Source: Rubrobacter sp. (lineage in GTDB: Bacteria > Actinomycetota > Rubrobacteria > Rubrobacterales > Rubrobacteraceae). From it: 10,195 nucleotides of DNA. The notes beneath the pieces were generated by a model, which saw only the letters and a program-made list of their open reading frames with translations, searched no databases and had not been told where the DNA came from. The first letter of the stretch is position 1, and each line of letters starts with the position of its first letter. The stretch lies in the NCBI GenBank assembly GCA_019247245.1, contig JAFAPF010000043.1:1-10195 (forward strand), in the 5' to 3' direction. This document shows, in pieces, positions 473 to 10,195 of this stretch. Made by a program: the position numbers and the translations under genes.

Positions 473-577
473 CATAGGAGCACGCCCTACCCAAGGACCT
501 CGTCACAGTCTTGCCGAATCTCGAGCGCTAGGACAAATATGGAAAGCGTTGGCGACCATAGAAGAAGTGGAGGAGCT

Positions 578-1657
578 ATGCAAAGGGGAGCAGATGATCG
601 GGGTACACCGGTTTTCGTGGGCGTAGACACGCACTCGGACGTGCACCTCTGCGTGGCCCTAGATCGGGCCAGCGCCTGGACATGCTGGCTGGTCTCCAAC
701 GATCAATCCGGCTACGCACACCTCTTGGAGTGGGCCCTGGGATTCGGCACCTCGGTTGTGGCCGGGATCGAAGACACAGGCAGCTATGGCGCCGGGCTCT
801 CACGCTTTGTGAGGAGCAGGGATATGCGCGTGGTGGAGCTCAACCGCACGAGCTGCCACACCGCCAGCACCGCCGCCACGGTAAGTATGACGCCGCTGAT
901 GCCGAGGCCGCTGCTCGTGCGGTCATGGCCGGAACCGCTGTGGGCGAGCCCAAGAGCGCCGACGGAGCAGCGGAAATGGTACGCGCCCTCAGGACCACCC
1001 GACGATCGGCAGTCAAGGCCAAGACCCAGACGGCCAACCAGCTCTGCACGCGCTGATGTCCACCGCCCTGTAGCAGCTCAAGGAGAGCCTCCGAGGGTTC
1101 GCAACCAAGGGGCTCGTCGAGAAGGCCTCGCGCTTCCGCTACGACGCGGAAGCAAGCGACCCGGTCGCAGCTACCAAGTTTGTCCTACGCTCCGGGGCCC
1201 GCCGTTACCGTGCGCTTTCCGAAGAGATAGCTGAGCTTGACGTGCAAATCGAGCGGCTGATGAGACAGAGGGCCCCGGAGCTGGTAGCGCTCGACGGCAT
1301 GGGGCCGGACACAGAGCAGCGACCCTGCTCATCGCCGCCGGCGATAATCCCGAACGTCCTGGGAGCAAGGCTGCCTTCGCCCACCTGTGCGGGGCAGCAC
1401 CCGTGCCGACCTCCTCCGGAAAGGTAGTCAGACACCGCCCCAACCCCGGCGGCAACCGCGACGCCAACCGAGCGCTGCACGTGGTGACGCTCAACCGCAT
1501 GAGGTGCGACCCTGGCATCCGACGAGCATACGTCGCTCGACGCACCGCTGAGGGCAAGTCCAAGAAGGAGGTCATGCGCTGTCTCAAGCGTTACATCGCC
1601 CGTGAGACCTACCGCGCTATCCTAGCTAGTACGCCTCCTTGCATTCGGCCGGGCTGA
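578..1657 (+). pseudogene. IS110-family transposase (DEDD RuvC-like plus serine domain), frameshifted
   Basis: The N-terminal RuvC-like DEDD domain starts with VFVGVDTHSDVH and continues with an IEDTGSYG acidic motif and KYDAADAEAAARA. The C-terminal Tnp domain has the catalytic-serine region PVPTSSGK followed by RHRPNPGGNRDANRAL. These parts lie in different frames. There is a frameshift near 845-885, another near 1040-1052, an in-frame TAG at 1071-1073 (a Glu is usual there), and a third frameshift near 1313-1318. Spliced together they give about 360 codons, normal for the family (roughly 340-410). The start ATG at 578 is preceded by GGAGGAG, although the spacing is short; an in-frame ATG at 539 is the alternative. 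The enzyme is known in the family to recombine DNA guided by a bridge RNA. This copy cannot make a full protein, so it could move only in trans. Confidence 0.9.
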
Positions 1658-1673
1658 TCTCCGACTACGAAGG

Positions 1674-1749: not shown

Positions 1750-1897
1750 AGCCTGTTGAAAAAGTGGTTGTCGTACTAGTCGATGCTCCAAAGCAAGACC
1801 AAAACATCTAAAACCCGAGCCAAGACCCTCCAAAACCGAGATTTCAAGGCCCCTGAGCGGGATCAGAAACGGACATGAAGGAGTTTTTCAACAAGCT
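1750..1897. mobile_element. Short non-coding element with terminal inverted repeats, copy A (MITE-like)
   Basis: The left end AGCCTGTTGAAAAAGT (1750-1765) is matched in inverse by AGTTTTTCAACAAGCT (1882-1897) with 2 mismatches in 16. The 148-bp interior has no ORF. A diverged second copy lies at 6811-6950 and shares internal blocks such as GCTCCAAA-CAAG, an AAAACCC block, AAG-CCCCTGA and GAAG just before the right end. Two copies with conserved inverted ends and no gene fit a miniature transposable element or the fused ends of an insertion sequence. I cannot assign the parent family. No target duplication is obvious at this copy. Confidence 0.65.
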
Positions 1898-1944
1898 GGG
1901 TGATTTATGACACACGTAGCAAACGTTATGGCTGAGGCTTATTA

Positions 1945-4728: not shown

Positions 4729-4821
4729 ATGAGTATGTGTGCTGCTATTAAGCTGGATGGAGCCAGATGTAACTACCAAGCAACGCCTCTCACGCCGGCC
4801 GCTTTGCCGGTTGCCACGTGA
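4729..4821 (+). pseudogene. Truncated Cys-motif (zinc-binding-like) small protein
   Basis: ATG 4729, behind GGGAGGG, gives MSMCAAIKLDGARCNYQATP and then LTPAALPVAT. The C-AAIK-DG-RC start matches a small family I know from mobile elements in actinobacteria, which continues to a second Cys-x2-His pair and a basic tail. Here the homology stops at about 4783 and the frame enters the 3' end of the opposite-strand propeller gene. So the second half, including the other metal ligands, is lost. The junction marks where the propeller segment was joined. Confidence 0.5.
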
Positions 4822-6736
4822 GGCCTTCGTCGGCTGAGTGGATGATGTCATCCGCGCCGGAAACAGCGACTGGTCCGGCGATGCCATCAGTGACAGCGAA
4901 CAGCTCGTTGGTCGTGTTGCTCGTCGCTCTCGTCCAGGTGATCTCGTCTGCCGAGGTGAGCACAACCCCCCCGCCACCAACCACTATCCATCCTTGAGGC
5001 GTTGCCGAGACGCCGCGCAACGTCACGTTGACGCCAGAGTCCGCCTCTCGCCAGTCGGTGGCATTCTCCGAGCGGAGAATGGTCCCGCCTACTCCCACCG
5101 CTACGTACTCCGAGGGGCTCGCTGTTACCGCCCGGAGCGTGAAGTTCGTGGCGGGGTCTGCCACCTTGGACCACCTCTTGCCGTCGGGCGACGTAATGAT
5201 GACGCCATCCATACCGACGGCAACGAAGCCAGCGGGCCCATACACGATGGTAAAGAGCAAGTCCTTCGTGGGGCTCGCCACCTGGGTCCACGTCGAACCA
5301 TCAGAAGAATTGAGGATCGTTCCACCCGCACCTACCACAACATGGAGACCGTTGGCGGCAGCACTAGACCATAGCTCCTGCCCAGTTCCGGAGACCTGCT
5401 TCGTGAACGATGTACCGTCGGCGGAGGTGAGTATGGTGCCGCCGGCCCCGGTCACGACCCAGAGGCCCTCGCCATACTGCGCGCTGCGCAGTTCGCGATC
5501 GGTCAATGCAGGCGTCGTGCTCCAGCTGGTTCCGTCAGTTGAAGCTAGGACCGTGCCGGCGTTGCCGACCGCCACGTAACTGTCACTCGATGCTCCAACA
5601 CCGTAGAGCGCCGCTACCTGTTCGTGCTCACCAGTGAATGTGGCGCCGTCAGGCGAAGCCAGCAACGTACCGCCTGATCCCGTGACGACCCACGTTCCAT
5701 CGCCGTAGGCCGTGCGCCACAGTTCTGTTCCGGGCACACCTGGGTTGCGAGCTGACCACGTGATGCCATCAGGAGAAGCGATCACGGTGTTGTTCGAACC
5801 GACCGCGAGGAACATTCCCGAACCGAAGCCGACACCGCGCAAGGCGTTCGTGGTGCCGCTCTCGCGCTTGGTCCAGGTCACGCCATCCGGAGACGTAAGC
5901 ACGACGCCCCCGCCCCCGGTGACGACGAACGTGTTGTTACCATATGCGACATCCCACAGCCAGTCACCGTTGTTCTGACGCACCGTCCATGCCGAACCAT
6001 CAGTTGATGTCGTTATGGCGCCTTGATCAGTAACTGCCACGAAGACGCCGTTGGCGTACGCAACATCGAAGAAATCGCCGGTCACCTGAGCGGCAACGGG
6101 AGTCCATTGCACGAGGTCGGTCGAGCGAAGGATGGTGCCGCTCTCGCCGACCACGACCCATACACCATCACCAAATGCCGCTCCTGAGAGCATATGATTG
6201 GTCTTGGTTTCGCGCTTTGTCCAAGTCCAGGTGTCTTCCGACGAAAGGATCGTGCCGCCTGTCCCTACCGCTAGATAGGTCTTATCATCAGTCGCAGCGC
6301 CACGCAATGTCTCGTCCGTCGGGGAGGGTACACGCTGCCAACTCTTCCCGTCGGTAGAATTTGCAATCACCCCACTGTTACCGACGACGACGAAGCCCTT
6401 ACTTCCATATGTGGAAGCCCACAGCAGGTTCGAGCCGATACCGGCTCCCGCCGATGACAGGGAGGTGGTGCCCCTGTCCGCGGTCGTGCCAGTCGACGGC
6501 GATGAGTTACTCGCCTCGTTGCTGCTGGCACACGCGGAGACGATCGCTGTGAAGACGACCAGGCCCAGCACGAACAACCAGTACCGCGAGGGCGAACGTT
6601 GGTCAGCCGCGTCGCGGTTGTCCGTCAACGGCCAACGCTCAGTCGTTCGACTGCTCTCGTTCGGCATGCTGGCCGCTGTAGACGACGCCCTGGGATAGTC
6701 CGGTGGCAGGTTCACCTTCTGGTTGACCTGCTTCAT
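4790..6736 (-). CDS. Lipoprotein-like surface protein with fourteen beta-propeller repeats (648 aa)
   Basis: ATG 6736 has GAGGAG six bases upstream. The N-terminus is a 50-residue polar tail, then a hydrophobic helix (about 52-67) ending in the lipobox V-S-A-C with Cys69. A Ser/Thr-rich linker (70-103) follows. The rest is fourteen units of 37-40 residues with the pattern L-(W/R)-x5-(Y/F)G-x4-VVVG-x-GG-T-ILxS-xDG-x-xWT. This resembles the Ycf48/BNR-like or sialidase-type propeller families. Fourteen equals two seven-bladed propellers. Units 5-9 alternate between VVTG-type and AVG-type blades, suggesting growth by two-blade duplication. The protein is likely exported and membrane-anchored, with a binding role; the ligand is unknown. 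The long tail before the lipobox is odd for a lipoprotein and may mean a type II anchor. The gene looks GC-richer than its neighbours and has no frameshift. Confidence 0.85.
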   Translation of the reverse strand: MKQVNQKVNLPPDYPRASSTAASMPNESSRTTERWPLTDNRDAADQRSPSRYWLFVLGLVVFTAIVSACASSNEASNSSPSTGTTADRGTTSLSSAGAGIGSNLLWASTYGSKGFVVVGNSGVIANSTDGKSWQRVPSPTDETLRGAATDDKTYLAVGTGGTILSSEDTWTWTKRETKTNHMLSGAAFGDGVWVVVGESGTILRSTDLVQWTPVAAQVTGDFFDVAYANGVFVAVTDQGAITTSTDGSAWTVRQNNGDWLWDVAYGNNTFVVTGGGGVVLTSPDGVTWTKRESGTTNALRGVGFGSGMFLAVGSNNTVIASPDGITWSARNPGVPGTELWRTAYGDGTWVVTGSGGTLLASPDGATFTGEHEQVAALYGVGASSDSYVAVGNAGTVLASTDGTSWSTTPALTDRELRSAQYGEGLWVVTGAGGTILTSADGTSFTKQVSGTGQELWSSAAANGLHVVVGAGGTILNSSDGSTWTQVASPTKDLLFTIVYGPAGFVAVGMDGVIITSPDGKRWSKVADPATNFTLRAVTASPSEYVAVGVGGTILRSENATDWREADSGVNVTLRGVSATPQGWIVVGGGGVVLTSADEITWTRATSNTTNELFAVTDGIAGPVAVSGADDIIHSADEGLTWQPAKRPA

Positions 6737-6810: not shown

Positions 6811-6950
6811 AGGTTGTTGAAAAAGTCGTTATCGGATCGGTCGGGGCTCCAAAACAAGTACTAAATAGGCTCAAAACCCCACAAAGGCAGGGACTTAAGC
6901 CCCTGAATGGGTCTCAGAGAGGGGGGCACGAAGAAGTTTTTCAACAGGCT
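6811..6950. mobile_element. Short element with terminal inverted repeats, copy B
   Basis: The ends are AGGTTGTTGAAAAAGT (6811-6826) and AGTTTTTCAACAGGCT (6935-6950), inverted copies with 3 mismatches in 16. The interior is a diverged version of 1750-1897, 8 bases shorter. It lies 74 bases upstream of the propeller gene start and ends five bases before the 91-bp attachment repeat begins. It may therefore have replaced the integrase end expected there, or may supply promoter sequence to the propeller gene. Confidence 0.65.
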
Positions 6951-6955
6951 CGGCG

Positions 6956-7046
6956 CTCACGTCGGATCTCTTTGATTTCTCCTGTTTTGCAGGTATTTAT
7001 GTGGCGCGCCCGGCAGGATTCGAACCTGCGACCCGCGGATTAGAAG
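6956..7046 (-). repeat. Attachment-site repeat A with tRNA-Arg(UCU) 3' half
   Basis: It aligns without gaps to 9521-9611; 63 of the 69 bases in 6978-7046 are identical, and the first 22 are weaker. Read on the minus strand, 7046-7002 is an exact tRNA 3' half. It has an anticodon loop CTTCTAA (anticodon TCT, Arg), stem TCCGC, variable GGGTC, T-arm GCAGG-TTCGAAT-CCTGC, acceptor CGGGCGC, G and CCA. No D-arm or 5' acceptor is present, and the similarity to the other copy stops at the anticodon loop, where tyrosine integrases commonly cross over. A conserved hairpin (CCTG-CAGG, 6981-6993) follows the tRNA end. Confidence 0.8.
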
Positions 7047-7141
7047 AGCGAGGCGACATGTTCACTGGGATTAGTCGGAGTTAGAGATCCTCCTACCTAA
7101 GCCTTTTGGTGTTCGCCTCGGTTCACCAGCGTTAACCGGCT

Positions 7142-7160
7142 CTACTGTAAAACTACTGTA
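7142..7160 (+). repeat. Paired direct repeat, candidate integrase arm site
   Basis: CTACTGTA occurs at 7142-7149 and 7153-7160, one helical turn apart (11 bp). The pair begins 96 bases to the right of the end of attachment repeat A. A comparable pair (TTGGTGTA twice) begins 97 bases right of repeat B. The matched geometry suggests arm-type binding sites for the integrase. Confidence 0.45.
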
Positions 7161-7453
7161 TTAGAGGAAAGGGGTCTGAGTCACATAAAGAGATATCCGG
7201 CCCTTGTATACAAATGTAAGAGCGGATAAAGGGACAAATCGATGAAAAACAGGTCTCTCGTTAGGGTGCCGTTCGGAAAAGAGGTATCCAACGAGGCTAC
7301 CAGCTGATACTGTCATAGGGTACTTATTTCTACATCCACAACCTTTAGAGTTTATCTACGTACGCCCCCCAACCTCTTGGCGGTGTACTGGCGTGAGTAA
7401 CAGCTTGTCTACCACTCCGAAATACCGAAAGGAGCTGAGTAAAGGTTAGAATG

Positions 7454-7488
7454 CCCCCCGAGCTGCAGAAATAAGCGCATGAGGGGGG
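7454..7488 (+). promoter_or_regulatory. Hairpin that could mask the acyltransferase ribosome site
   Basis: Six C residues (7454-7459) face six G residues (7483-7488) across a 23-base loop. The G-run is the only Shine-Dalgarno candidate for ATG 7496, seven bases away. Pairing would hide it, giving a translational off state. No aptamer is evident, so what would open it (a protein, RNA or temperature) is unknown. Confidence 0.4.
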
Positions 7489-7495
7489 AATAGAC

Positions 7496-9010
7496 ATGAG
7501 CGCAAGCGGCTTACTCTCGAGGCTACTCGGGAGAGATGCGGACGAGGACGACTCTAGACCCTATTCGGCCGAGGAGATCGAGACGAGGGGCTCCTGGAAA
7601 AAGAAGGAGCCTGAAGAGGTGCGACAGCTACGAGCCTTGAGCATTCAGCGTAGCACTGGGACGATCGCCAGCCTGCCACCTACCGTCTCGCAGGGACATG
7701 CGGAAACAAGTGTAGAGCTCACTCATGAAAAGCCTGCGCGTGAAGGAAAGCAAACCTCTGACCTAGACACTCGCAACGTGGTGATAGATGCTCTACGGGG
7801 CCTCGCCATCTTGAGTGTCGTGGGAACCCACATTGCCGGACAATGGAAGTATACTCCGACCGACTTCGGAGGTTCACTGCCGCAGCTAACCCTCCCTTTT
7901 TTGAATGTAGACGCCATAGACTTGGTTTTTTTGGGTACTTTAGGGCGTCCCGCCTTGTCAACCTTAGGAGTTTATCTATTCTTCCTCCTGAGCGGCTACC
8001 TGCTTCTCGGGTTAGAGGATGAGAGAAAGCGTAGGGGCACCTACAGCGTGCGCTCCTACGCCCTACGACGAGCGCTGCGCATCTTGCCCGCCTATTACGT
8101 CGCGATAGCGATCGTCGTGGTCATTGCATCGCTCATATTTTCCTCTGCCATCTCTCATGAATACATGGTCAAGTGGGGAGTTTTGCATCTCTTGTTTCTA
8201 TACGCAATTTTGGAACCCGTCAACGGGGCTGTATTGCATACCTACTGGTATTTGAATGTCGAGATGTTTAATTATTTATTGCTACCGTTCGTCGTTGCTT
8301 TGTTGCCGCGGCTGCGGCAACGTCTTGCACTCTCGGGGCTGCTATTCGTCCTTTCTTTAGGTGTACAGGTGTATATAGGCCAGAACGGTCTTCGCAGCGT
8401 AGAGGCTCTCGAAGCGGGTGCGCTCAACCTCTGGTTTCTATCCGAATTACCGGTTGTGATGTTCCTCTTTATGGTAGGGGGATTGCTGCGGATGACGATT
8501 GAGCGCTTGGGTAATCAGAAGCAGTCGCGGTGGCTTCCTTTGGTCAGCTCGGTTTTGCTCCTAGCGTCGTTGTCATTGTACGCGCTGCAGCCGTTGTTTG
8601 TTGCTAACCCTTTTATAGAGGAAATTCTGGGCAACGGGCAGATAGCGGTAATTGCTTTCTTTGCCTCAGCTGTGCTTGGTGCGCCGCTCTTGTCTAAGCT
8701 GTTGCGTTGGAGACTTCTAGCCTCCATAGGTCTGATCAGCTACTCGATGTATCTCTTAAACGACATAATTTATGCGGTAGCAGGAGCGGCCGGTGTTCTA
8801 GACCTCGTACGAGACTGGGCGGTGAGCGGAGGGTCCTCCTTAACGATGTGGATTGCCTTCTTTGCCTATATGGTAGGCCTCTTGGAGGTATGTATTATCG
8901 TTTCGCACCTCAGCTACCGTTATGTAGAGAGACCATTTCTGCGCAGCAAAACCTATTTGACCGCTGCGCCAAGCACTGCGGACTGCGCGAAGGCGAATTG
9001 TTGGAGTTGA
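7496..9010 (+). CDS. Acyltransferase-3 (OafA-like) membrane acetyl/acyltransferase
   Basis: The first ~93 residues are a polar, charged cytosolic extension. The Acyl_transf_3 domain begins with VIDALRGLAILSVVGTH (96-112), which contains the conserved His112. It continues with a GVYLFFLLSGYLL helix (158-170), YALRRALRILPAYY (188-201), and the TYWYLNVEMFNYLLLP segment (249-264). About ten membrane helices in all end in SYRYVERPF (473-481). Such enzymes move acetyl or other acyl groups onto surface polysaccharide, peptidoglycan or glycolipids; the substrate here is unknown. The family usually ends just after the ERPF motif. Here the last ~20 residues read out-of-frame integrase DNA, so the original C-terminus has been replaced. 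The start ATG 7496 has GGGGGGA upstream. It is the only intact cargo between the two attachment repeats. Confidence 0.85.
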   Translation: MSASGLLSRLLGRDADEDDSRPYSAEEIETRGSWKKKEPEEVRQLRALSIQRSTGTIASLPPTVSQGHAETSVELTHEKPAREGKQTSDLDTRNVVIDALRGLAILSVVGTHIAGQWKYTPTDFGGSLPQLTLPFLNVDAIDLVFLGTLGRPALSTLGVYLFFLLSGYLLLGLEDERKRRGTYSVRSYALRRALRILPAYYVAIAIVVVIASLIFSSAISHEYMVKWGVLHLLFLYAILEPVNGAVLHTYWYLNVEMFNYLLLPFVVALLPRLRQRLALSGLLFVLSLGVQVYIGQNGLRSVEALEAGALNLWFLSELPVVMFLFMVGGLLRMTIERLGNQKQSRWLPLVSSVLLLASLSLYALQPLFVANPFIEEILGNGQIAVIAFFASAVLGAPLLSKLLRWRLLASIGLISYSMYLLNDIIYAVAGAAGVLDLVRDWAVSGGSSLTMWIAFFAYMVGLLEVCIIVSHLSYRYVERPFLRSKTYLTAAPSTADCAKANCWS

Positions 9011-9493
9011 AGTGGTAAGACATAGATTTGGATGCGGGCAAACTCTCCGTGTGGCGCACGCTATCGGAGACTCGTACAGGACCTAAATTCGAGCGTCCGA
9101 AGAACGATAAGGGTTGCTCTAAACGCTTACCCAAAAATCCATAGAAGCCCTCAGAAGCCACAGTACGCCAGAACGAGGAGCGTCTAACGTTAGGCTCCGA
9201 GTAGGAAGACCACGGTCTAGTATCTCCCTCCCAGAGAGGTACCGCGATGAACTCAAAGAATCTAATCGCTCGCAGCTTCAAGCCTATCCTTGTAAAGGTC
9301 GGGCTACCCAAAACGGAACGTTTGCATGACCTACGCCATACGTGCGCCACACTTCTACTTTCCAGAGGCGTGCCCCAGAAATTCGTGCACGAACTTCTGG
9401 GGCACGCCAACATCTCGATAACCCTTCACCTACACTCACGTGCTACCAGGTATGGGTGATGCTGCCGGAGCGATGGACGAAGCACTAGGCTGA
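8941..9493 (+). pseudogene. Tyrosine integrase, C-terminal catalytic domain, decayed
   Basis: The catalytic domain is readable in pieces: CGLREGELLELKW (Arg I), then TAA 9016-9018, then DIDLDAGKLSVWRTLSETRT and GPKFERPKNDKG. A short frame slip follows near 9140-9165, then a TAG where Trp is expected before EDHGL. The next part is NSKNLIARSFKPILVKVGLP, LHDLRHTCATLLLSRGV (His-x-x-Arg) and ELLGHANISITLH. One more frameshift at about 9427-9430 puts the nucleophile Tyr in the next frame (YTHVLPGMGDAAGAMDEALG, stop 9491-9493). All active-site residues survive in the DNA, but no single frame contains them. The N-terminal arm and core-binding domains are gone, cut off where the acyltransferase reading frame enters. 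It would have catalysed integration at the tRNA-Arg site right next to it. Confidence 0.85.
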
Positions 9494-9497
9494 ACAG

Positions 9498-9538
9498 GTT
9501 AGAGTCAAAAAGACTCAACACTCGCGTCGGGCCTTTTT
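9498..9538 (+). terminator. Weak terminator-like structure after the integrase
   Basis: GTT-A-GAGTC (9498-9506) pairs with GACTC-AAC (9512-9519), with one bulge and an AAAAA loop. A run of five T residues follows only 14 bases later (9534-9538). The gap makes efficient termination doubtful. Confidence 0.3.
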
Positions 9539-9611
9539 ATCTTCTCCTGTTTTGCAGGTATTTATGTAGCGCGTCCGGCAGGATTCGAACCTACGATCTG
9601 CGGACTAGAAG
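9521..9611 (-). repeat. Attachment-site repeat B with mutated tRNA-Arg 3' half
   Basis: This is the second copy of the 91-bp repeat, 28 bases after the integrase stop. The tRNA 3' half (9611-9567, minus) has changed bases relative to copy A. CCA has become CTA, the variable region reads AGATC and the T-stem GTAGG, with the acceptor CGGACGC. It also lacks a 5' half, so it cannot be a working tRNA. The sequences right of copies A and B diverge at the anticodon loop. This is the expected place of an integrase crossover next to its own gene. Confidence 0.8.
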
Positions 9612-9707
9612 TTCTAGCCCACACGTTTCTGGAAGTATCAGAAACGGCTTGTTCAGGCCGGATTCTCTCGCCATGCGTTGCCTGATGTTTTTGGTCGTGT
9701 ACATGGG

Positions 9708-9797
9708 TTGGTGTAACAATTGGTGTAGAAAACCTCTACAGGTCACGTTAGCACCGTAGCCAGGCTAATCAATATTCGCCTTGGACCACTACACCGA
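9708..9797 (+). repeat. Candidate integrase arm sites right of repeat B
   Basis: TTGGTGTA occurs at 9708-9715 and 9720-9727 (12 bp apart), and an inverted near-copy, TACACCGA, at 9790-9797. The first pair begins 97 bases from the end of repeat B, matching the 96-base offset of the pair at 7142-7160. The rest of 9612-9929 has no gene or site I can support. Confidence 0.45.
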
Positions 9798-9929: not shown

Positions 9930-10195
9930 TTACCCGGACACGTTCGCTTCGAAAACACGTGGACTCACCCCAATGAGTTGTCGAAACGCCTCTAATGAGG
10001 CCACCAACTCCTCGGAGCGAACATCCCTCGTGATGAAGACGACGCGCGAACGGTGATCCTCGTCGGGCCACCCTTCGAGGTGATTAGGCGGGTGTATGAC
10101 GTGCTGGACACCGTTGAGCAAGATGGGTCCTGCCTCACCGACATCGAGAAGACCCTTCACACGCAAGACGGACTCACCCCGCGCATGAAGGAGCA
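9930..10195 (-). CDS. CobW/COG0523-family GTPase, C-terminal domain (partial at window edge)
   Basis: The frame is open to the right edge and reads LLHARGESVLRVKGLLDVGE, then PILLNGVQHVIHPPNHLEGW, PDEDHRSRVVFITRDV and a final helix, stopping at TAA 9930-9932. RVKG, LNGVQH and the RSRxVFI strand are hallmarks of the CobW C-terminal domain, which partners the P-loop GTPase domain of these metal chaperones. The GTPase part lies outside the window. The family's role is delivery of metal (often zinc, or cobalt for CobW itself); which metal cannot be read from this half. No frame damage is seen. Confidence 0.85.
   Translation of the reverse strand, partial: LLHARGESVLRVKGLLDVGEAGPILLNGVQHVIHPPNHLEGWPDEDHRSRVVFITRDVRSEELVASLEAFRQLIGVSPRVFEANVSG

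What the first reader, a model, noticed from the sequence alone, without database searches (positions are those of the whole stretch)
6956..9727. Tandem integrative-element unit at tRNA-Arg(UCU) with matched arm sites
Two 91-bp repeats each carry only the 3' half of the same tRNA. Each is followed 96-97 bp later by a pair of 8-bp direct repeats. A decayed integrase ends 28 bp before the second copy. Neither copy has a tRNA 5' half on its right, so the structure is not a simple attL/attR pair. It looks like core-arm-cargo-integrase-core with further elements on both sides, i.e. a tandem array of about 2.57-kb units carrying an acyltransferase.
Basis: partly seen in the sequence, partly recalled or inferred. 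Interest (0 to 1): 0.7.

Follow-up and report, generated by a model that had tools for sequence, protein, structure and literature searches.

The report
Two-sided island hotspot at tRNA-Arg(UCU)
The window holds decayed mobile elements that inserted one beside another into the same arginine tRNA gene of an uncultured bacterium of the Rubrobacter family, and related genomes show that this gene is invaded from its other end as well.

Summary
Two 91-bp repeats (78/91 identical) each hold the 3' half of tRNA-Arg(UCU); an exact 8-bp pair starts 96 or 97 bp after each; a decayed tyrosine integrase ends just before copy 2; no intact tRNA is in the window. Copy 2 is best read as a junction of two integrated elements: integrase end, 3' half, non-integrase arm of the next element. 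Relatives (Rubrobacteraceae) show full islands of 43 and 28 kb at this gene, similar junctions, and integrases largely sorted by tRNA target. The '2.57-kb repeating unit' is not supported: its two ends carry unmatched arm sites (13/19, against 15-19/19 in seven elements with both ends known), while the copy-1 arm is 19/19 identical to an integrase end in another genome of the genus. The stretch is most likely a deletion remnant of two neighbours. Beyond the finding, the same tRNA is also entered from its 5' side in this family, and the window's own genome carries a 5'-half remnant. Tandem islands are known; 5'-side ones are known but rare.

The parts
6956..7003 (.). Flank of copy 1 on the tRNA 3'-end side, with TTTTGCAGG motif; resembles the integrase side (P') of Arg(UCU) elements
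   Evidence: 40/48 identical to 9521-9568; motif 10 bp from the 3' half as at copy 2, L065 and L055:10945
7004..7046 (-). Copy 1: 3' half of tRNA-Arg(UCU) from the anticodon loop (presumed crossover region)
   Evidence: 43/43 identical to the intact gene of G008; no 5' half
7047..7165 (.). Non-integrase arm (P arm) of an element, arm-type pair CTACTGTA at 7142 and 7153
   Evidence: the 19-mer recurs exactly in G014 (L059), with one change in G038 (L058), and after the integrase of G003:C133 (L148)
7496..9010 (+). Acyltransferase (cargo), Pfam domain at residues 97-470; its last residues run into the integrase remnant in another frame
   Evidence: PF01757 E 5.5e-33; PHROG O-acetyltransferase E 3.5e-37 for 7496-8950; residues 1-92 61% identical to a protein on own contig C363
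8968..9493 (+). Decayed tyrosine integrase: C-terminal part only, 3 in-frame stops, stop codon at 9491-9493
   Evidence: tree places it in an 11-row, mainly Arg(UCU) integrase clade, support 98/94
9521..9568 (.). Integrase-side (P') flank of copy 2
   Evidence: TTTTGCAGG motif; a worn TAGAGTCA-like pair follows the integrase stop just before it
9569..9611 (-). Copy 2: 3' half of tRNA-Arg(UCU), 38/43; junction of two elements
9612..9730 (.). P arm of the next element, arm-type pair TTGGTGTA at 9708 and 9720
   Evidence: own C311:4963-5135 is 75% alike over core and arm
9930..10193 (-). CobW C-terminal domain, possible cargo of the right-hand element, cut by the contig end
   Evidence: PF07683 E 3.9e-13

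Best explanation
The window is part of a serial (accretive) insertion locus at tRNA-Arg(UCU). Small islands with a phage-type tyrosine integrase recombine at the anticodon loop. Each leaves the displaced 3' half beside its non-integrase arm and rebuilds the tRNA at its integrase end. A later element inserting at the rebuilt gene turns that end into an integrase - 3' half - arm junction without a 5' half; copy 2 is such a junction. The stretch between the copies is not one transposable unit but most likely a deletion remnant of two neighbouring elements: the arm of a CTACTGTA-type element, an acyltransferase cargo gene, and the C-terminal part of an Arg(UCU)-clade integrase from another element. 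Shown: anatomy, arm pairs, clade of the integrase, same architecture in relatives. Inferred: crossover point, order of events, the deletion fusion, loss of mobility, an element left of copy 1.
For: Full islands with this anatomy: G016 43.1 kb and G018 27.6 kb, 3' half plus arm pair at one end, integrase ending 98 bp before intact tRNA-Arg(UCU) at the other. 12 Arg(UCU) 3'-half-only sites among the 38 rows (a 13th, L150, is Arg(ACG)-like by eye); 3 of the 12 have an integrase directly on the left (window copy 2, L065, L148) and 4 more the integrase-side motif (window copy 1, L055 twice, L145). Arm pairs exact in 12 of 17 flanks against 1.2% of random stretches. Of 83 integrase ends, 44 have an intact antisense tRNA within 150 bp, of 17 isoacceptor types, and 6 only a 3' half. 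Integrases cluster largely by target. Arms at the two ends agree at 15-19 of 19 positions in 7 elements (three near-identical; in three the ends lie on different contigs), at 13 in the window stretch; the copy-1 arm against the G003 integrase end is 19/19, and that integrase groups with Arg(ACG) and Arg(CCT) ones, 99/99. An acyltransferase 36% identical lies about 600 bp from intact tRNA-Arg(UCU) in G002, same orientation.
Against: The intact tRNA-Arg(UCU) gene was not found in this 83.8%-complete assembly, so the far end of the right-hand element is unseen. The arm after the window's integrase is worn, so its mismatch to the copy-1 arm could be drift. Copy 1 is pristine and copy 2 decayed, the reverse of what stepwise insertion at the right-hand gene predicts. 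A similar GCAGGTATTT flank occurs at intact tRNAs without a detected integrase in L063 and L137, so the left element is not proven. G003's integrase is at an Arg(UCU) 3' half yet lies outside the Arg(UCU) clade, and that clade holds one Arg(CCT) integrase, so clade and target do not map one to one. 30 of 83 integrase ends had no tRNA signal.
Confidence: 0.78

Rival explanations
1. The stretch 7004-9611 is one small element (about 2.57 kb: arm, acyltransferase, integrase) that decayed in place, a cis-mobilizable element between two att sites.
For: Both ends are att-like and in the right orientation, with the integrase at the correct end. The arm at the integrase end may simply have decayed.
Against: Arms agree at 13/19 against 15-19/19 in elements with both ends known; the copy-1 arm type is found after an integrase of a different clade; the integrase lacks its N-terminal part and directly abuts the acyltransferase.
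Confidence: 0.2
2. Simple segmental duplication of a tRNA fragment, no integration.
For: 80% identical 120-nt repeat.
Against: Right flanks unrelated (35/120) yet both carry arm pairs at the same offset; integrase at the junction; same architecture in several genera.
Confidence: 0.03
3. Assembly artefact: a repeat-driven chimera in a 548-contig assembly.
For: G009:C577 ends exactly at the core, so assemblies do break here.
Against: The copies differ at 13 of 91 bases; comparable 3'-half-only sites exist in independent assemblies (L055, L145, L148).
Confidence: 0.05

Closest known systems
tDNA genomic islands of the Islander database, incl. tandem arrays (PMC4383910)
   Same: Tyrosine integrase, anticodon-centred crossover as one of its classes, intact tRNA plus displaced fragment; tandems are recorded (125 of two or more, 4 of three or more; section 5 read)
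   Different: Here the window's integrase is broken and the ends of the unit do not match; the locus is also loaded from the 5' side
CIMEs and site-specific accretion (reviewed in PMC5704250; passages seen)
   Same: Decayed att-flanked stretch lying in tandem with another element
   Different: No ICE parent identified and no conjugation gene among the window's Pfam matches (ten ORFs); the unit looks fused from two elements rather than one decayed element
5'-side tRNA integration: pTN3-like archaeal integrases (PMC8371274, section 18 read); 159 of 3919 Islander islands with a 5' fragment
   Same: Element rebuilds the 5' half, so the tRNA would be driven from the element side
   Different: In Rubrobacteraceae the 5'-side integrases lie inside the clade that otherwise works on the 3' side of the same tRNA, with similar arm sites

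Membership tests
tRNA-targeted tyrosine-integrase genomic island (3'-side) | 3' tRNA fragment at one end and intact tRNA next to the integrase at the other | tested here: inconclusive
   Met in G016 and G018; for the window the intact gene was not found in the assembly
tRNA-targeted tyrosine-integrase genomic island (3'-side) | Integrase of the phage-integrase family at the tRNA end | tested here: met
   PF00589 and clade placement, decayed
tRNA-targeted tyrosine-integrase genomic island (3'-side) | Arm-type sites of the same kind at both ends of one element | tested here: not met
   13/19 in the window unit, 15-19/19 in 7 elements with both ends known; so the unit is not filed as one island
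Tandem (accretive) island array | Junction integrase end - tRNA fragment - arm of next element, no 5' half | tested here: met
   Window copy 2; the same at own C295 with a tRNA-Val 3' half
Tandem (accretive) island array | Each member has its own integrase and tRNA fragment (Islander's rule) | tested here: not met
   Only one integrase remnant in the window; the right element is cut by the contig end
CIME | att sites kept, recombination and transfer genes lost, relation to an ICE | tested here: inconclusive
   att sites kept and integrase broken; no ICE parent sought or identified
Mobility (any of the above) | Excision and circular form | not testable with these tools
   No reads held

The most novel reading that the evidence does not exclude
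Within the integrase clade of Rubrobacteraceae that targets tRNA-Arg(UCU), a lineage reversed its polarity at the same anticodon-loop crossover (the palindromic stem makes both orientations bindable). One tRNA gene is therefore loaded from both sides: 3'-side islands rebuild the 3' half, 5'-side islands rebuild the 5' half and cut the gene off from its tRNA-Gly and tRNA-Pro neighbours, so that AGA decoding comes to depend on a promoter inside the mobile element. The window's genome shows both kinds of scar.
Probability: 0.6. Interest if true: 0.6.

Novelty: new variant of a known kind. Interest (0 to 1): 0.45.

Why it matters
It gives a series of insertions at one gene, with arm sites that tell which end belongs to which integrase, and a natural case of an integrase lineage apparently flipping its orientation on a symmetric tRNA site. 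That makes the old question of why islands nearly always take the 3' half of a tRNA gene testable by comparing sister integrases.

Tried and rejected
Considered and set aside: simple attL/attR pair (no intact tRNA in the window); segmental duplication (unrelated right flanks); a functional split tRNA (own C437 holds a 5' half, but it is 34/40 to G008, with changes that by eye fall in the acceptor and D stems, and five relatives show such a remnant); a known structured RNA (no Rfam hit at gathering score in the window). Searching named genomes with the acyltransferase gave nothing (the own genome may be left out there); the second scan, allowed because the first found nothing, was made with the G016 integrase. 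The acyltransferase search of 39 family genomes gave 3 with a match, the own genome included. Own contig C355 was first read as another tandem; it is one 2.43-kb stretch between a 3' half and the intact tRNA-Arg(CCT), no integrase found in it. L150:6275 was first counted as an Arg(UCU) site and then dropped because its anticodon loop looks like Arg(ACG). Rows dropped before the tree: pieces under 140 residues and identical sequences, and 3 of the remaining 46 (two partial, one distant). Label shuffles do not by themselves show that the 5'-side integrases cluster (as low in 108 of 500 shuffles, three rows only). The full text of Williams 2002 is not held; it is known here only as cited in PMC8371274.
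Full report
What is there. The two repeats, the 3' halves, the arm pairs, the decayed integrase and the acyltransferase are at the stated places. The repeats agree at 78 of 91 bases; left parts 40/48, tRNA parts 38/43; the 120 bp to the right agree at only 35, the level of unrelated DNA. Exact 8-bp pairs start 96 bp (period 11) and 97 bp (period 12) after the core. Shuffling gives such a pair in about 1 per 1000 tries per site.

Where it comes from. The genome (G000, 3.11 Mb, 548 contigs, 83.8% complete) belongs with the Rubrobacteraceae: the integrase of its family relative G016 is found, at 100%, in Rubrobacter taiwanensis strain Yellowstone, on a contig of 99,476 bp, the length of G018:C56, and in a Rubrobacter MAG; the next best matches are Rubrobacter and Rubrobacteraceae MAGs.

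The intact locus. In many relatives tRNA-Arg(UCU) lies beside tRNA-Gly(UCC) and tRNA-Pro(UGG), on one strand. G016 and G018 show complete islands: a 3' half with an arm pair at one end and, 43.1 and 27.6 kb away, an integrase ending 98 bp before the intact tRNA. The same arm type stands at both ends (18/19 and 19/19). Of the G016 island I scanned 7 proteins against Pfam and 5 of them against PHROGs: four P-type ATPases, a sulfatase, a transposase and a primase-like protein.

Serial insertion. The site table has 38 rows from regions that I picked from the hit list, so it is not a full census. 25 rows are intact genes and 13 are 3' halves only; one of the 13 (L150) is Arg(ACG)-like by eye, leaving 12. 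Three of the 12 have an integrase directly on the left (window copy 2, G009 L065, G003 L148) and four the integrase-side motif without an integrase (window copy 1, two sites in G033, G009 L145). L065 ends at the core and L148 43 bp beyond it, so their right sides are unseen or short. L013, L056 and L061 lack the motif and look like outer, chromosome-side ends; so does L066, where the pattern matched CCAGCAAA but tRNA-His is the neighbour; L069:6033 has only ACTGCAAA, seen by eye. Four intact rows have an integrase on the 3' side: L057, L060, L067, and L139, whose integrase ends at tRNA-His. In the own genome other tRNAs look alike: an integrase and then only a 3' half at C295 (Val by eye) and C317 (Phe by eye), the first with a TTGGTGTA pair on its right.

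A family of integrases sorted by tRNA. I examined 83 integrase ends (60 fetched for this from the list, 23 from earlier loci). 44 have an intact antisense tRNA within 150 bp, 6 only a 3' half, 3 an intact sense tRNA, 30 neither. The antisense ones cover 17 isoacceptor types. An exact arm pair follows the integrase in 39 of the 44, 2 of 6, 2 of 3 and 3 of 30. A tree of 43 integrase sequences groups them largely, not strictly, by target; the window's fragment falls in an 11-row clade (98/94) of integrases at or near tRNA-Arg(UCU) plus one at Arg(CCT).

Not one unit. In seven elements with both ends known (G016, G018 and G022 are near-identical; the two ends in G022, G009 and G035 lie on different contigs, so their pairing is assumed) the arms match at 15-19 of 19 positions. 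The two ends of the window stretch match at 13, within the 10-13 of the window arm against the other elements. The arm of copy 1 is 19/19 identical to the arm after the integrase of G003:C133, and that integrase groups with Arg(ACG) and Arg(CCT) ones (99/99), not with the window's fragment. The same arm also occurs in G014 (exact) and G038 (one change) at a 3' half of tRNA-Lys(CUU) (anticodon read by eye). The integrase lacks its N-terminal part and starts where the acyltransferase domain ends. The simplest account is a deletion that fused two neighbours. The other view, one element with a worn-out arm, remains possible.

Cargo. The acyltransferase resembles phage-borne O-acetyltransferases (PHROG 3333, and O-antigen acetylase 6705), which suggests surface modification; this is inference from family names. 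Its first 92 residues are 61% identical to a protein on own contig C363, so the gene itself looks fused. A 36% identical acyltransferase lies about 600 bp from the intact tRNA-Arg(UCU) of G002 in the same orientation, with no integrase detected between but an AGTGGTAA pair, seen by eye.

The other side. Six of the 25 intact rows have an integrase piece on the 5' side, reading towards the tRNA in its sense (L062, L064, L069, L071, L072, L142; the first three are partial). Six loci hold a 5' half without a 3' half: G024, G027, G035, G001, G025 and the window's own genome at C437:8762-8800. Five of these six stand next to tRNA-Gly (in G035 it is 3.4 kb away). Arm pairs stand beside the remnant: exact in four, one mismatch in one (G001), none convincing in the own genome (4 mismatches). 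In G024 (3 contigs) and G027 (1 contig) remnant and intact gene lie 8.7 and 8.9 kb apart with the integrase between. All 3 sense cases are Arg(UCU). Their integrases fall in a clade of four (99/97) with one G034 integrase that is near but not adjacent to the tRNA, inside the Arg(UCU) clade; the step that joins them to the 3'-side G016 integrase has weaker support (83/86), and label shuffles are as low in 108 of 500. One reversal of polarity is the simplest reading, on few sequences. That the tRNA is then driven from the element is inference; no transcript was seen.

What is known. Islander lists 3919 islands, 125 tandems of two or more, 159 with a 5' and 3760 with a 3' fragment (PMC4383910, section 5 read). 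[quoted passage not shown] Accretion with decayed elements is described in PMC5704250 (passages). One four-term search for Rubrobacter gave 3 papers, none with such islands in title or abstract start; searches listed nothing whose title or abstract start describes two-sided loading of one tRNA. That is no proof of absence.

Limits. No intact tRNA-Arg(UCU) was found: not by DNA search nor among the 30 typed of 35 tRNA matches (one above the cut-off and four below it were not typed). The same 30 also lack tRNAs for Phe, Trp, Tyr, His, Ile and Asn, so the assembly is incomplete and loss cannot be claimed. Copy 1 is better kept than copy 2, which does not fit plain stepwise insertion at the right-hand gene; an element inserted at copy 1 would explain it, unproven.

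Noticed in passing
window 1755-1900 and 6813-6953: Two related stretches of about 140 bp with ends like CCTGTTGAAAAA / TTTTTCAACAGG; the second abuts copy 1. Matches to its end on own contigs C226, C408, C473, C329, C127: probably a MITE that displaced the sequence left of copy 1.
   Followed up: partly
window 539-1660: IS110-type transposase in pieces (PF01548, PF02371).
   Followed up: no
window 4790-6736, minus strand: Open 648-aa repeat protein with weak beta-propeller and DUF6242 matches.
   Followed up: no
G000:C437:8757-8805 (L087): Decaying 5' half of tRNA-Arg(UCU) before tRNA-Gly and tRNA-Pro: probable scar of a 5'-side insertion in the window's own genome.
   Followed up: yes
G000:C355:2725-5229 (L014): 2.43-kb stretch between a 3' half and the intact tRNA-Arg(CCT), no integrase found in it.
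   Followed up: no
L071:12126-17386 (G024): The 8.7-kb 5'-side island carries an MmeI-like restriction-methylation protein and a primase/helicase-like AAA protein.
   Followed up: partly
L013:2915-2960 (G000:C311): A 3' half that looks like tRNA-Leu(UAA), without 5' half, about 2 kb left of the Arg(UCU) 3' half (by eye).
   Followed up: no
L121:1254 and 7761 (G033:C82): Intact tRNA-His and a 3' half of it 6.5 kb away, on the contig that also holds two Arg(UCU) 3' halves.
   Followed up: no
window 7320-7770 and L088:1897-2350 (G000:C363): The start of the acyltransferase gene and some sequence before it resemble a gene on own contig C363, as if a promoter and leader had been borrowed (the upstream part by eye).
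   Followed up: no
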